In this document: one piece after another, positions 230-27,858 of the stretch
Layout: each line of letters opens with the position of its first letter
Position numbering within the stretch: position 1 is the first letter of the stretch
Virus record (IMG/VR): IMGVR_UViG_3300009285_006090
Coordinates: 1 to 33,608 of that record
Length of the DNA: 33,608 nt
DNA from: a virus
Direction: 5' to 3' (one strand)
The notes under the pieces: generated by a model
What the model was told of the DNA's origin: nothing
The model's input: the letters and a program-made list of their open reading frames with translations, nothing else
Database searches by the model: none
Program-made: the position numbers and the translations under genes

Positions 230-657
230 TTAATTTAGTACAGCCATCAAAACTTGAATCAAATGCCAAGTGTGGAGATTCAAGTAAAGAGACGGGATTG
301 ATTCAAATAAATACAAAAAGAATGGAGCCATTGGATGAATATATCAAGTCTTTTGATGAAAACAATAGTGAAATAAAAATAGTTTATCCAGCAAAACCAA
401 GATTTTGTATGACTGGCTGGTTTCAATTCGGGAGGAGGAAAGATTGGCTTCCAATTCCTAAAGAATTGAAATATTTTTATGGAGATGATTTGCTTATTGC
501 TATTATGGCTCGTAAAGGGTGCAAAGTAGCAAGATTAGTCTCAGATTATGTGTCACATATGGAATCATCTACTGTAAGTAAAATAGTCCCAGTTCAAAAA
601 GCTTTGGAGGAAGAAGGTTTTATTTTTAAACAAATAGTAGAGGGCTTGTTTAGATGA
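151..657 (+). CDS. Truncated glycosyltransferase (GT-A type, C-terminal half) with foreign N-terminus
   Basis: The frame is open for 168 codons. From about residue 80 onward it resembles the C-terminal half of a family 2 glycosyltransferase: a FCMTGWFQFGRR segment, then a YGDDLLI acidic motif, then an HMESST ending that could supply the metal-binding histidine. The donor-binding N-terminal half of such enzymes is missing. The first 25 or so codons lie opposite the O-antigen-ligase-like fragment, so the ATG at 151 is probably not a native start. Residues about 19-55 (KIGGHLYKV...IQIN) look more like the start of a phage ImmA/IrrE-like protein than a glycosyltransferase, but this is a weak impression. 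The stop overlaps the next ATG by four bases (ATGA), so the 3' end belongs to the sugar-gene operon. I treat it as a real gene whose 5' end is lost or rearranged. Confidence 0.5.
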   Translation: MDLALGGKLLSLAKSKQLKIGGHLYKVNLVQPSKLESNAKCGDSSKETGLIQINTKRMEPLDEYIKSFDENNSEIKIVYPAKPRFCMTGWFQFGRRKDWLPIPKELKYFYGDDLLIAIMARKGCKVARLVSDYVSHMESSTVSKIVPVQKALEEEGFIFKQIVEGLFR

Positions 658-1619
658 AAAGGATTCAATTAGATAAAAGGACTGATCTGAAATCAGAAAT
701 TCCTCTTTCATCCCCATATTGTATTTTTATAGACCCCTCTAATGCATGTAATTTTAAATGTAGGTTTTGTATGAATAAACATATAAAACAACCAACGACA
801 ATGAAAATGCATTTGTTTAAAAAGCTAATAGATGATTTAGATGAATTTGAATCACCTATTAAAACGATAAGACTTTATGGATTTGGAGAACCTTTCTTAA
901 ATAAAGATTTTTGTAATATGGTTCGATATGCTAAAAAAAGCTCTAAAGTTTTAGCGGTTGATACAACAACTAACGCAAGTCTTCTTACTCAAGAATTAAT
1001 AGACGATTTAGTTTCTAGTGGTATAGACAGAATTAATATTTCTATAGAAGCAATGAATACAGAAGCGTATAGAAAGTTTACAAATAATTCTAATATTGTT
1101 TTTGAGAATATTATTAATAATATTAGATTACTGTTTGGAAAAAGAAAAAGCACTATTATCTTTATTAAAATAAATGGGGACTACCTTACTAATAAAGAAA
1201 GGGAATTATTTTTGTCCGTTTTTTCTCCGATTTCTGATGGTTGCGATATAGAACATACAATGAATTGTTGGAGAGATACTAATATTGGTGATGTCAATAA
1301 AGAGGTTGGTATATATGGCCAACCATTAAAAGAAGTAATGGTTTGCCCATATGTATTTTATAGTTTCTTTATTCACTCAGATGGGGATGTTTCTGCTTGT
1401 TTTTTGGACTGGAATAAAAAACTAGTTATTGGAGATGCTAAAAATGAAAGGCTAAAATCACTTTGGAATGATAGGTTGATGAATGCAATTAGGAAACTAA
1501 TGCTTAATAAGGAACGTAAAAATCATCCGGTGTGTTATGAATGTAATCAATTAATTGCTGGCTTGCCAGTAGATTTAGATGATTATTCTGAAGATATTTT
1601 AGGGAGAATAAATGGGTAA
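654..1619 (+). CDS. Radical SAM protein with SPASM-type C-terminal domain
   Basis: The 321-residue product has the radical SAM cluster motif CNFKCRFC (Cys32, Cys36, Cys39), which binds the 4Fe-4S cluster that cleaves S-adenosylmethionine. A GFGEPFLN segment follows, matching the GGEP motif of the family. The C-terminal third has a SPASM-like pattern: a VCPY cysteine near residue 231, DGDVSACFLDW near 243-253, IGDAKNERLKSLW, and a final PVCYEC pair near 295-298, which would hold an auxiliary iron-sulfur cluster. SPASM enzymes modify peptides, proteins or carbohydrates; the substrate here cannot be read from sequence. No precursor-peptide gene is visible next to it. Its neighbours are glycosyltransferases and a methyltransferase, so a role in sugar or surface-glycan modification is the best inference. 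Start ATG 654 overlaps the previous stop. Confidence 0.85.
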   Translation: MKRIQLDKRTDLKSEIPLSSPYCIFIDPSNACNFKCRFCMNKHIKQPTTMKMHLFKKLIDDLDEFESPIKTIRLYGFGEPFLNKDFCNMVRYAKKSSKVLAVDTTTNASLLTQELIDDLVSSGIDRINISIEAMNTEAYRKFTNNSNIVFENIINNIRLLFGKRKSTIIFIKINGDYLTNKERELFLSVFSPISDGCDIEHTMNCWRDTNIGDVNKEVGIYGQPLKEVMVCPYVFYSFFIHSDGDVSACFLDWNKKLVIGDAKNERLKSLWNDRLMNAIRKLMLNKERKNHPVCYECNQLIAGLPVDLDDYSEDILGRING

Positions 1620-6107: not shown

Positions 6108-6818
6108 ATGGAAGAAAATACCTACTGTCTTTGCGGGTGCGGAAGAAAAGCAGATAAAGGGAAAAGATTTGCAAAAGGCCATGCAAAATTTTTAAAAGAA
6201 AATACTTCTCCTCCATTCTGTGCTTGTGGCTGTAACAAAACAACAGAATGGGATAAGTATAAAAATCAGTACAATAGATTTATAATTGGTCATATTGCAA
6301 AAACTGTTTTTATCAAAGGGAGGAAATTTACAGAAGAGCATAAGAGAAATATTGGCTTGGGACAAATAGGGAAAATCGTTTCGGAAGAGACAAAAAAGAA
6401 GTTAAGTGAAAGAAATAAGGGCAATACAGGAGAGAATAACCCATTTTATGGAAGAAAGCACACTAATGAAACAAAAATTAAATTTAGTGAAATTGCTAAA
6501 AAGAGAGTTGGCCCTAAATCTTCTAATTGGAAAGGAGGGATTCATCGCCTTAGCCAACAAATAAGAAATTCTGAAGAATACCAAAATTGGCGATTAAAAA
6601 TATTTGAAAGAGATAATTTTCATTGTACTAATTGTGGAAAATCTAGTAATGGCGATTTGAACGCTCATCATATAAAACCATTTCAACAAATATTGCCTGA
6701 ATATAAGATTAAAACAATGGCAGATGCTTTAAATTGTCAAGACCTTTGGAATATTGAAAACGGTATAACTTTTTGTAAACAGTGTCACATTAAAGCACAT
6801 TCTACTAAGGAGGCTTAA
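6108..6818 (+). CDS. Free-standing HNH homing endonuclease with NUMOD-type DNA-binding repeats
   Basis: The 236-residue protein starts with two zinc-ribbon-like CGCG/CGCN segments (CLCGCGRKADKGKRFAKGHA and CACGCNKTTEW). It then has several NUMOD3-type repeats (GRKFTEEHKRNIG, SEETKKKLSERNKG, NPFYGRKHTNETKIKFSE, SSNWKGG). A C-terminal HNH domain begins ERDNFHCTNCGKSSNG, has the AHHIKP motif and a final ITFCKQCHIKAH. HNH homing nucleases cut a DNA site lacking their own gene and spread by repair. It sits in a 96-nt-plus insertion between tail tube and lipoprotein genes, with no sign of intron or intein halves around it, so it looks free-standing. Its AGGAG site is seven bases ahead of the ATG. 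Confidence 0.88.
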   Translation: MEENTYCLCGCGRKADKGKRFAKGHAKFLKENTSPPFCACGCNKTTEWDKYKNQYNRFIIGHIAKTVFIKGRKFTEEHKRNIGLGQIGKIVSEETKKKLSERNKGNTGENNPFYGRKHTNETKIKFSEIAKKRVGPKSSNWKGGIHRLSQQIRNSEEYQNWRLKIFERDNFHCTNCGKSSNGDLNAHHIKPFQQILPEYKIKTMADALNCQDLWNIENGITFCKQCHIKAHSTKEA

Positions 6819-24557: not shown

Positions 24558-24962
24558 TCAATTTGTCAAAAAATCATCTAAATTGTTAATTAAATCCAGA
24601 GTAAAAGAATTATCGTCCATCCCCGCATTAATTGCTAAAATTAATCGCATTGCTTGTTCCAATGAAGCGTTTTTTACAATTTCAAAAGCTAAATTATCAA
24701 CATCTATTTCTACGGAAATTGGTAACATGTTTTTATCCCTCCTGCTTATTTTATCTATATAATTATAGATTCTTGTCCTTTCTATTACAAAGTCTTTCCC
24801 AAGAATATCGCAACATTCTTTAAAGTTTGTTCCTTCTTTAAAAATCCAATCCCAGTCTTCTTTCCAATCAATAAATTCATCATCTATTTGTTCTTGCCTA
24901 TAATAAATAATATTTTCTACAGCATCATTAATTAAAGCTCTAGCTACCTTTTTTAGGTTCAT
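24558..24962 (-). CDS. Hypothetical acidic protein
   Basis: The 134-residue protein is helical and acidic, rich in aspartate and tryptophan (DEFIDWKEDWDWIFKEG), and ends in a Leu/Asp-rich helix (TLDLINNLDDFLTN). No domain is recognised. Its ATG overlaps the stop of the ribonucleotide reductase exon by four bases (ATGA), so translation follows from that gene. Confidence 0.65.
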   Translation of the reverse strand: MNLKKVARALINDAVENIIYYRQEQIDDEFIDWKEDWDWIFKEGTNFKECCDILGKDFVIERTRIYNYIDKISRRDKNMLPISVEIDVDNLAFEIVKNASLEQAMRLILAINAGMDDNSFTLDLINNLDDFLTN

Positions 24963-25917
24963 AATTCACATTTGCCTCCAGAACAGGCAAATTCTTGAAT
25001 TCCTGTTGTTGAATCTTCCTTTTCATATTCTGGCAATCTTTCCCAATTAATATTTTTAGGAAAATTCTGAATTAGTTCTTCATATTTTTCTTTTGTTATT
25101 TCTTCATAAGGTGCATTTTGATAAATATGGTTTGTTTTAGGAAAAAAAGACAACCCCCCTATATAATCCCAATTTTTCCAAATCCAATCTGCTATTGCAA
25201 AATATTCGTTGTCTGTATAATAAATTGTTTGACTTGGGTTGCCTTCGCACCAAAACTCTCTATAAGTTTTCCATAATTCTAATTGTTCTAAAGCATTAAT
25301 ATTATTTGACGTGATTGCATTTTCTGGAGATTTACAATAAAAAGAGAAAATATATTTATCTTGCTCTTCTACATATGGGACTCCCTCGCTTATCATTAAT
25401 TGCGAAAGAGGATCTTTTTTATCTTGTCGAACTCTTCTAATATAGTAAGGGAACATTCTCGGATGTATTCCAGAAGAAGAATTAACCAATAATGATACGG
25501 TTCCACTAGGTTTTATAAGAGTCAATTGCTTACTCTCATTAATTCCTAATTTTGCAGCCCATTCTTTATTTACCTCTTTAGAAAAATTCTTTAAATTTTT
25601 TAATTCTTCTTCTAAATTAACAAATCCATATTTTCTATACCATTTTTTTACAATAATATCGGCCGATGGCTTTTTGCCACCCATAACAAGATGGTCCAGT
25701 ACCCCCGTCAATGAAACTCCAATAAGTCTTTCTTCTTCAGCATTTTTTTTCCAAATGCTTCGAAGATATCTAAAATCTGTAAGAGTTACTTGTAGTGTTC
25801 CCAAAACAGTAGCATATTTTACTTTTCTCTTTAAATCTTCTAAAGTATCTTCTGGTCGAACTACCACTTCAGAAAGACAACAAAAGCCTCCCGAATCTCT
25901 TAAAATTGCTTCGCCGC
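24959..25917 (-). CDS. nrdJ: Class II ribonucleotide reductase, second exon (C-terminal part)
   Basis: After intron removal the frame continues from the split cysteine codon (T|GC) as CGEAILRDSGGFCC, then VVVRPEDTLEDLKRKV and EEERLIGVSLTGVLD. The family is adenosylcobalamin-dependent ribonucleoside-triphosphate reductase (RTPR/NrdJ, monomeric class II), which makes dNTPs without oxygen or a small subunit. The NPCGE cysteine is the thiyl radical carrier (Cys408 in the Lactobacillus enzyme) and GFCC about 12 residues on provides one of the reducing cysteines. The C-terminus ends in ACSGGKCEL, the redox-active pair that re-reduces the active site. A GTG codon at 25924 could start a free fragment, but it would lack the active-site cysteine. 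Confidence 0.85.
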
Positions 25918-26105
25918 CCCACACAATAAGTAATCAAATATAATTCTTATCGTGCGCCAGACTATCGCATCTATTTATGACTAATAGCCCTCTCGCTTAG
26001 TCGTTCACGCTGCTAAATAAAATTATCTAGCTTGCGCCTTGTAGAGTTATATTCCTCGTCCAAGTCAATAAGAGAGGGTTTAAAATCCACACGTTTATAT
26101 GGCTA
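25918..26105 (-). ncRNA. Group I self-splicing intron, about 188 nt, in the catalytic cysteine codon of the ribonucleotide reductase
   Basis: Exon 1 ends AAATCCAT (26113-26106) and pairs with an internal guide GTGGATTT (26090-26083), giving P1 with a U.G wobble at the 5' splice site. The last intron base is G (25918). P3: CCCTCTC (26078-26072) with GAGAGGG (25994-25988). P7: GACTA (26002-25998) within the conserved GAACGACTA, with TAGTC (25964-25960). P8: CTATT (25987-25983) with AATAG (25975-25971). P9: an 11-bp stem, 25956-25946 with 25930-25920. Joining 26106 to 25917 restores Asn-Pro-Cys-Gly-Glu. No ORF inside. This is near the lower size limit for group I introns. Exact splice positions are inferred from these rules. 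Confidence 0.9.
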
Positions 26106-27858
26106 ATGGATTTAGCAGGTAGTCTCCGTCATATTCTCTGCCACAAGATTCTGCTTTTTTCTTTAGAGCATTTTTGTTTACTATTCCTCTTTCTCCAGAT
26201 TTTGAAACATATTGACTTTGCCATTCTTGAGCAAAAGAATCTAAATCTGGCTTTTCGGTATATGCTACAGAATTATTAGCTAATGCTCTTTGTGGATTAA
26301 TTATAAACCAGTCTCCCGTTTTGGCTCTCCTCATACGGTCATCTGATAAATTACTAAAACTAATCATGGCAGCCCTTCTTACACTTCCAACAATTACCGT
26401 TTCAGCAATTTTGCACATTAAATCATGACATTCCAAACTATTAAGTTTTTTCCCAGCTGCGTTTTTAAATAGTCTAATAGTAAATTCAAATAATTTTGCT
26501 AAAGGGAGGGGGCCGGAGTTATGAGAAACAAAACCATTAGCCACAAAATTATGATTCGGGCCTTCCATGCATAAATCATAAACTTTTTCGACCCCTTTAT
26601 ATTTAATAGAAATTATTTTATCAAAAGTTAAATATTTATGAGAATAAGGATCTCCTAATGTCCATTTATTAAAATGATGCCTTCTATGGCATTTTTCATA
26701 TAATGTAGTTAAATTACCCCAATTATTATTGTGTGGATTTTCATCTATATGGTGAACAACTAACCTTACTCCTTTTATATTACAATTTTCACATGTATTA
26801 AAAATTTTTAAGTAATCTCTACATTCTTTTCTCTGCCTTGCAGTTGTATCAGACGCGCTATTTTGGATTTGAGATTTATCATAACAAATTTTACATCGAG
26901 TGGCTTTTTTGGATATAGGCTTCTCACAATCAACACAAATCCCAGTCTTTTTTTCTTTTGAACCATTAACTGCAATTAGATCTCCAACTATAAAATTATT
27001 CAAGAAATCATAATCACCAGTTTCTTTCATAAACCTATGATTATCTGTTGCTTTAATTCTATATCCGTTTTCTGTTAAAATTTCATAAACCGGAGCATTT
27101 CCGTTATCTATCACTGTTAAAACATTATTTCTAAAAAATATTCCATTTTCTTCATCTAAGGATCTTATTTTTACATCTTTAAAATGATTTGGCTTCCCTT
27201 TCCAAAACCCTTGGTTCCTTTCAAGATCATATAATTCTTTTATTGTTAATTCATTATACCCTCTTGTTTTTTTTCTATCTTTATAAACTATTGTGTCTCC
27301 AGTTAGGCAAGCTCTTCCCCCAAAAACTTTTAGTCGCGCCCCTGCTGGTCTAATTTTCGAAAGATCGTATTTAGGGATTTTGCCTACATAAAGCAAACTA
27401 ATTAATTCTCTCAAAGCTGACGCCCAACCAATTTTTGAATCAGCAACTACAATAACTGTATCTGAATCAAAAAATTCTTCTGCCACTTCAGGAAGTTTTG
27501 AAATATATTGTCTCTCAACACTAAATCCGACCCCGCAACCACACATTAAAAGAAAAAAAATCTCATCAAAAACACGAGGACTTGTAACAGCGCAAGAGCT
27601 ACAATTATAACCAGAACAATGATCTCTTTCTAGAGCTTTGCCCGCTGTCATTAAAGCTCTCATGCTCGGCATTACCTCTAACTTTCTGATTGCCTCAATT
27701 GCTTCTTGAAAATCTTCATTTTCTTTCAACCATTCATGCTTACTCTGGAAAAAATTTTTATATCTATTTACTGTTTCATCCCATGTTTCTCTTCGTTTTT
27801 CCCTTTCTAAATACCGTGAATACTTAGAGAGATGAATATATTTTTGAAAATCGTCCAA
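26106..27858 (-). CDS. nrdJ: Class II ribonucleotide reductase, first exon, with intein (N-terminal part)
   Basis: Starts at TTG 27858, fixed by AGGAGG at 27869-27864, five bases away. Residues 1-183 and 448-584 are host enzyme. YSRYLEREKRRETWDETVNR, VMPSMRALMTAG, GYNCSSC and LLMCGCGVGFSVERQ are RTPR signatures, with Cys86 in GYNC probably one of the active-site reducing pair. The intein (residues 184-447) interrupts GGRA|SGPLPL. The exon ends at LLNP plus the T of a cysteine codon. Without RNA splicing, translation ends three codons into the intron (LAI stop), giving a protein without the radical cysteine. The mature, doubly spliced enzyme would be about 639 residues, shorter than the 739-residue Lactobacillus enzyme. 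Confidence 0.87.
26518..27309 (-). mobile_element. Intein with HNH homing endonuclease domain in ribonucleotide reductase
   Basis: Residues 184-447 of exon 1 (264 residues) form an intein: a first Cys in CLTGDTIVYKD (block A), GYRIKATDNHRF (block B, with the TxxH histidine), EKVYDLCMEGPNHNFVANG (block F/G) and a final VSHN before the +1 Ser of SGPLPL. These residues are what class 1 protein splicing needs. Between B and F sits an endonuclease region: paired CVDCEK and CKIC zinc cysteines, CENC, VHHIDENPHNNNWGNL and CHRRHH, an HNH nuclease with its zinc site. It inserts in a conserved GGRASGP motif, a known type of intein site in ribonucleotide reductases. Confidence 0.93.

What the first reader, a model, noticed from the sequence alone, without database searches (positions are those of the whole stretch)
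25918..26105. Compact group I intron splitting the catalytic cysteine codon of a phage class II ribonucleotide reductase
The two reductase ORFs are joined if 26106 is linked to 25917, which recreates Asn-Pro-Cys-Gly-Glu with the Cys codon split T|GC. The 5' exon end AAATCCAT pairs perfectly with GTGGATTT in the intron, with U.G at the splice site. P3, P7 (GACTA/TAGTC in the conserved GAACGACTA context), P8 and an 11-bp P9 are all visible, and the intron ends in G. At about 188 nt with no ORF it is among the smaller group I introns. It sits exactly on the radical-carrying residue, so an unspliced message cannot make active enzyme.
Basis: partly seen in the sequence, partly recalled or inferred. 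Interest (0 to 1): 0.85.

Follow-up and report, generated by a model that had tools for sequence, protein, structure and literature searches.

The report
Compact self-splicing intron in phage reductase
A 188-base insert cuts a virus's DNA-building-block enzyme gene exactly inside the codon for its key catalytic cysteine; it has every tested mark of a small self-splicing (group I) intron, and relatives of it sit at the same codon in many other, only distantly related, viral copies of this enzyme.

Summary
The insert 25918-26105 (-) splits the Cys codon (T|GC) of NPCGE in a class II ribonucleotide reductase (RTPR, TIGR02505). That Cys aligns with position 408 of solved RTPR 1L1L, its thiyl-radical cysteine. 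The interpretation (compact ORF-less group I intron) is supported, although Rfam's Intron_gpI gives no hit, even sub-threshold; that model does detect a control phage intron.

I found 19 non-redundant relatives at the same codon. Aligned, they show group I P1, P3-P9 and P10 with strong compensatory change (25 of 50 pairs changed on both sides; 0/500 shuffles as good). P10 pairs the intron with the 3' exon in 58 of 60 cells: every TGC-type Cys has G in the intron, every TGT has A. Two further core covariations hold in 101 of 101 related introns.

The introns sit in both TIGR02505 and TIGR02504 reductases. One intron-bearing reductase has an intronless partner 98% identical in protein, with a precise empty site. 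Roseobacter phage CRP-118, an isolate, carries the intron, annotated only as two reductase genes. Elsewhere inteins occupy the same cysteine.

The single intron is ordinary. The recurrent, site-specific, Rfam-invisible lineage is the interesting part. Splicing itself is untested.

The parts
26106..27858 (-). 5' exon of class II ribonucleotide reductase (start codon not settled; interrupted by an intein)
   Evidence: TIGR02505 E 1.2e-36; aligns with 1L1L
26518..27309 (-). 264-aa intein with HNH-like region, at GGRA|CLTGD...VSHN|SGPLPL
   Evidence: Pfam Intein_splicing E 7.9e-16; coordinates; absent from L010-L018
25918..26105 (-). group I intron, 188 nt, no ORF
   Evidence: codon restoration, covariation with 19 relatives, model R1 match 164 bits (window intron was in the training set)
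24959..25917 (-). 3' exon of the reductase
   Evidence: TIGR02505 E 6.1e-38
26106..26113 (-). 5' exon strand of P1, AAATCCAT, U at the splice site
26083..26090 (-). internal guide, GTGGATTT (P1 3' strand)
   Evidence: pairs change together with the exon: AU, GC, CG types at column 7/29
26091..26093 (-). P10 strand in the intron (CGT), pairs with 3' exon GCG 25917-25915
   Evidence: 58 of 60 cells paired in 20 introns, 0/20000 shuffles
26095..26097 (-). in-frame stop TAA near the intron's 5' end
26072..26078 (-). P3 5' strand
   Evidence: 6 of 7 pairs with double changes
25988..25994 (-). P3 3' strand
26038..26064 (-). P4-P5 (P4 26064-26061/26041-26038; P5 26057-26055/26046-26044)
26007..26037 (-). 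P6 and P6a
25998..26004 (-). P7 5' strand with bulged C at 26003 (guanosine site)
   Evidence: flanking pair A-U or G-C without exception in 101 introns
25959..25964 (-). P7 3' strand
25971..25987 (-). P8
   Evidence: 5 of 5 pairs with double changes
25965..25970 (-). J8/7; G at 25966 covaries with the P4 pair 26062/26040
   Evidence: 86 U/G and 15 C/A, no exception
25920..25956 (-). P9, 11 bp
25918..25918 (-). terminal G of the intron

Best explanation
25918-26105 is a compact, ORF-less group I intron in the class II ribonucleotide reductase gene of a tailed-phage-like virus. In the transcript, the last exon bases AAAUCCAU pair with the guide GUGGAUUU (P1). Guanosine bound in P7 attacks after the U of the U.G pair. 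The freed exon end then attacks after the terminal G, with the 3' exon held by P10 (GCG with CGU), joining U to GC to make the Cys codon of NPCGE. It belongs to a lineage of 167-190-nt introns fixed on this one codon in several divergent class II reductases. Shown here: position, helices, covariation, empty sites. Inferred: catalysis, and the route of spread (an endonuclease acting in trans, co-conversion with a neighbouring intein, or reverse splicing).
For: Codon restoration and intronless relatives; 94% of helix cells paired and 25 of 50 pairs doubly changed in 20 introns, 0/500 shuffles, slid controls 35-49% paired; P10 58/60 cells, 0/20000 shuffles; P4-J8/7 and P7 covariation, 101/101; 98%-identical intronless allele L029 against L026; same intron in isolate phage CRP-118; Cys aligned to 1L1L C408; related cores split a tRNA-Asn gene that is whole again once the insert is left out.
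Against: No Rfam Intron_gpI match. No RNA data. Relatives were gathered with patterns that fix parts of P4, P3' and P7, so those columns add little; P1, P5, P6, P8, P9, P10 and most of P3 were free.
Confidence: 0.95

Rival explanations
1. It is group I-derived but no longer spliced in this virus, so the reductase is a pseudogene.
For: No RNA data exist; compact introns may need helper proteins (general knowledge).
Against: Every core helix is intact in the window copy, with perfect P1 and P10 pairing, and both exons are open with conserved active-site motifs.
Confidence: 0.04
2. The two ORFs are translated separately and assemble as a split enzyme, as reported for phage Aeh1 nrdA.
For: Split reductases are known (PMC3653736); a GTG start lies at 25924.
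Against: Neither half would carry the radical Cys; the T|GC split needs RNA joining.
Confidence: 0.01
3. Ribosomes bypass the insert without splicing, as in T4 gene 60.
For: An in-frame stop lies near the 5' end of the insert, at the junction itself in 15 of 20 relatives.
Against: The junction falls inside a codon, and the conserved elements are those of a group I catalytic core, which bypassing does not need.
Confidence: 0.01

Closest known systems
Group I introns of phage reductase genes (T4 nrdB and nrdD, SPbeta bnrdE/bnrdF, Twort nrdE; reviewed in PMC3653736 and PMC3984707)
   Same: Group I introns in phage ribonucleotide reductase genes, near conserved residues; SPbeta bnrdE also has both an intron and an intein.
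   Different: Those are class I or III genes and many of the introns encode an endonuclease; here class II, ORF-less, 188 nt, exactly in the radical-Cys codon. Their insertion sites could not be compared (papers not held).
Group I intron of the Nostoc punctiforme RIR gene (Meng 2007, cited in PMC1995217)
   Same: Group I intron in a cyanobacterial reductase gene.
   Different: That one carries an insertion sequence; its site could not be checked here.
Inteins at the reductase Cys (L027, L028, L030 here)
   Same: Selfish splicing elements in the same or adjacent codon.
   Different: They splice as protein, not as RNA.
Rfam RF00028 Intron_gpI
   Same: Same ordering of P1, P3-P9 by manual comparison.
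   Different: The model does not score this family at all.

Membership tests
Group I intron | 5' exon ends in U paired as U.G with an internal guide (P1) | tested here: met
   20 of 20 U.G; guide and exon change together
Group I intron | Interlocked P3/P7 with P4-P6 and P8 in the canonical order | tested here: met
Group I intron | P7 guanosine site: bulged base beside a G-C pair | tested here: met
   bulged C or A, then G-C; flanking pair covaries 60/41, no exception
Group I intron | Intron ends in G; P10 aligns the 3' exon | tested here: met
   20 of 20 end in G; P10 58/60 cells
Group I intron | GTP-initiated self-splicing | not testable with these tools
   needs RNA
Rfam RF00028 model | score at or above 50 bits | tested here: not met
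   no match; control phage intron scores 106 bits. This is a limit of one model, not a defining feature of group I introns.
Group I subgroup (IA-IE) | subtype-specific model match | not tested
   no subtype models on hand; no P2 or P7.1 seen
Class II ribonucleotide reductase (TIGR02505) | Radical Cys in N-P-C-x-E, C419 equivalent, similarity along the whole protein | tested here: met
   whole-protein cut-off not reached because the exons were scored apart

The most novel reading that the evidence does not exclude
A lineage of minimal, P2-less, ORF-less group I introns, invisible to the Rfam model, has moved repeatedly between anciently diverged class II reductase families (TIGR02505 and TIGR02504) but always to the radical-Cys codon, adjusting its guide to the Cys codon's third base. 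Having no endonuclease of its own, it would move by reverse splicing or by an endonuclease acting in trans.
Probability: 0.55. Interest if true: 0.68.

Novelty: new member of a known kind. Interest (0 to 1): 0.52.

Why it matters
The catalytic-cysteine codon of class II reductase is a meeting point for both RNA-level and protein-level parasites. The 98%-identical intron-plus and intron-minus pair (L026/L029), together with introns matched to Cys codon usage, makes the open question of how ORF-less introns spread testable.

Tried and rejected
Rfam gathering and relaxed searches: no gpI match, so family covariation was used instead. A single-sequence fold finds most stems but cannot show the P7 pseudoknot. 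Two exon-2 queries failed because of a frame error of mine and were repeated. Landthaler 2002 and Meng 2007 are not in the library, so their insertion sites could not be compared. A search for the window's HNH ORF or intein in the other intron-bearing loci found only the window's own copies, so a shared endonuclease was not shown. Flank co-conversion in L026/L029: 5 differences within 11 nt of the junction against a mean of 5.7 per 100; suggestive only, since selection for P1/P10 pairing gives the same pattern. The intron tree has no starred branch; the sister relation of the window intron to L106 is 91/87.

Full report
WHAT IS THERE. The window is an IMG/VR virus record of 33,608 bases. On the minus strand two ORFs match the two parts of one class II ribonucleotide reductase (TIGR02505: E 1.2e-36 and 6.1e-38). 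Joining 26106 to 25917 restores NPCGE, and the joined protein (intein left out) aligns from residue 1 to 639 with viral reductases that have no insert, at about 73% identity for L010-L013. Against the solved L. leichmannii enzyme (1L1L) the split Cys falls on position 408, and the next conserved Cys on 419. C408 is the thiyl-radical residue by established knowledge.

RFAM. The Rfam group I model gives nothing at gathering score or at E up to 10, nor for the relatives L207 and L003. The model works on a control, Staphylococcus phage 110 (106 and 69 bits). The miss therefore reflects the model's range; Nawrocki et al. 2018 (PMC6125680) made the same point and used subtype models.

RELATIVES. An exact core pattern found 8 viral loci. 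Among 80 viral reductase loci, one (L026) has a 172-nt insert at the same T|GY position, and model R1 finds an intron only there. A pattern that includes the P9 start typical of the window intron gives 24 viral contigs. The 23 of these with a readable junction lie at the reductase Cys codon, and the last (L210, cut at its 5' side) has the matching 3' exon. They include reductases of the TIGR02505 and TIGR02504 families with motifs NPCGE, NPCSE, NPCAE and NPCVE; a further intron, in L178, sits in the variant motif NACTE.

STRUCTURE. Twenty non-redundant introns at this site were aligned (A1) and the group I plan was tested pair by pair. Cells paired were 93.8% (35-49% when slid by 1-3 columns; 81.5% in shuffles). 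25 of 50 pairs and 128 cells changed on both sides (0/500 shuffles as high). P3 has 6 of 7 pairs with double changes, P8 5 of 5, P5 3 of 4, P6/P6a 2 of 6, P9 6 of 11, P1 2 of 7. P10, between intron and 3' exon, is paired in 58 of 60 cells (0/20000 shuffles), and the third base of the Cys codon goes with the intron base: C with G 15 times, T with A 5 times. In 101 non-redundant introns of the wider family, a P4 pair (U-A or C-G) goes with J8/7 G or A without exception (86 and 15), and the P7 pair beside the bulge is A-U (bulged C) 60 times or G-C (bulged A) 41 times without exception. The search pattern allowed all combinations. Such contacts fit the known group I core (general knowledge).

TRANSLATION. 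In 15 of 20 introns the first intron bases make a stop codon with the exon's T (T|AA or T|AG); in the window the stop is 4 codons on. [quoted passage not shown] 2014 (PMC3984707) as a possible way to help intron folding and splicing.

HISTORY. L026 (intron) and L029 (none), both from metagenome 3300020045, have reductases 98% identical in protein and differ at 106 of about 1867 exon bases, with a precise empty site. On a reductase tree intron presence needs at least 4 changes. The window's nearest reductases lack the intron, while its nearest intron (75% identical, support 91/87) is in L106, a TIGR02504-type reductase. This suggests lateral movement of the intron between different reductases at one codon, but the intron tree is weakly supported. 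Inteins occupy the same Cys in L027, L028 and L030.

KNOWN OR NOT. Phage reductase genes are the classical home of group I introns and inteins (Dwivedi et al. 2013, PMC3653736), and group I introns prefer conserved sites (Swithers et al. 2009, PMC2814812). A group I intron in a phage reductase is therefore a new member of a known kind. I found no description of this lineage or of its fixation on the class II radical-Cys codon in the open-access papers searched, but subscription papers were not searchable. CRP-118 is deposited with two reductase CDS and no annotated intron.

STATUS OF STEPS. Shown: position, codon restoration, covariation, empty sites, distribution. Inferred: GTP-dependent splicing in vivo, and the route of spread.

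Noticed in passing
window 26518-27309 (-): A 264-aa intein with an HNH-like region interrupts the same reductase at GGRA|S, about 410 nt upstream of the intron; its homing could carry the intron along by co-conversion (untested).
   Followed up: partly
window 6108-6818 (+): Free-standing NUMOD3-HNH ORF among tail genes; a possible trans-acting homing endonuclease.
   Followed up: partly
L027:2916-3998, L028:3430-3997, L030 from 2770 (approximate): Inteins inserted at the same reductase Cys (NPC / CGE) that other viruses fill with the group I intron.
   Followed up: partly
L202 near 2695-2909 and L204 near 494-717 (+); similar layout in L205 (complete genome NZ_CP019384.1): Introns with the same core lie in the D-loop of a tRNA-Asn(GTT) gene of Omnitrophota-type bacteria; leaving out 215 or 224 nt gives a tRNA that ARAGORN accepts. 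A D-loop position is unusual for group I introns as far as I know.
   Followed up: partly
L186, L201, L203, 11 codons downstream of the Cys codon: A second interruption right after the codon for the C419-equivalent Cys (PYQFC|), so two inserts within about 35 exon bases.
   Followed up: partly
L176:4472-4653 (-): A related intron whose best junction reads NPCG|EQ, about 5 nt downstream of the usual site.
   Followed up: partly
L209:1988-2154 (MW202674.1) and about 75 loci such as L003, L007, L099, L113: A wider set with the same core but extra 3' stems (usually ending GTAACA) interrupts other viral genes, for example a P22-like coat gene; some loci hold two or more copies.
   Followed up: partly
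Roseobacter phage CRP-118, OR420741.1 34084-36157: Reductase deposited as two CDS (gp44, gp45) with a 172-nt intron of this family between the true exons.
   Followed up: yes
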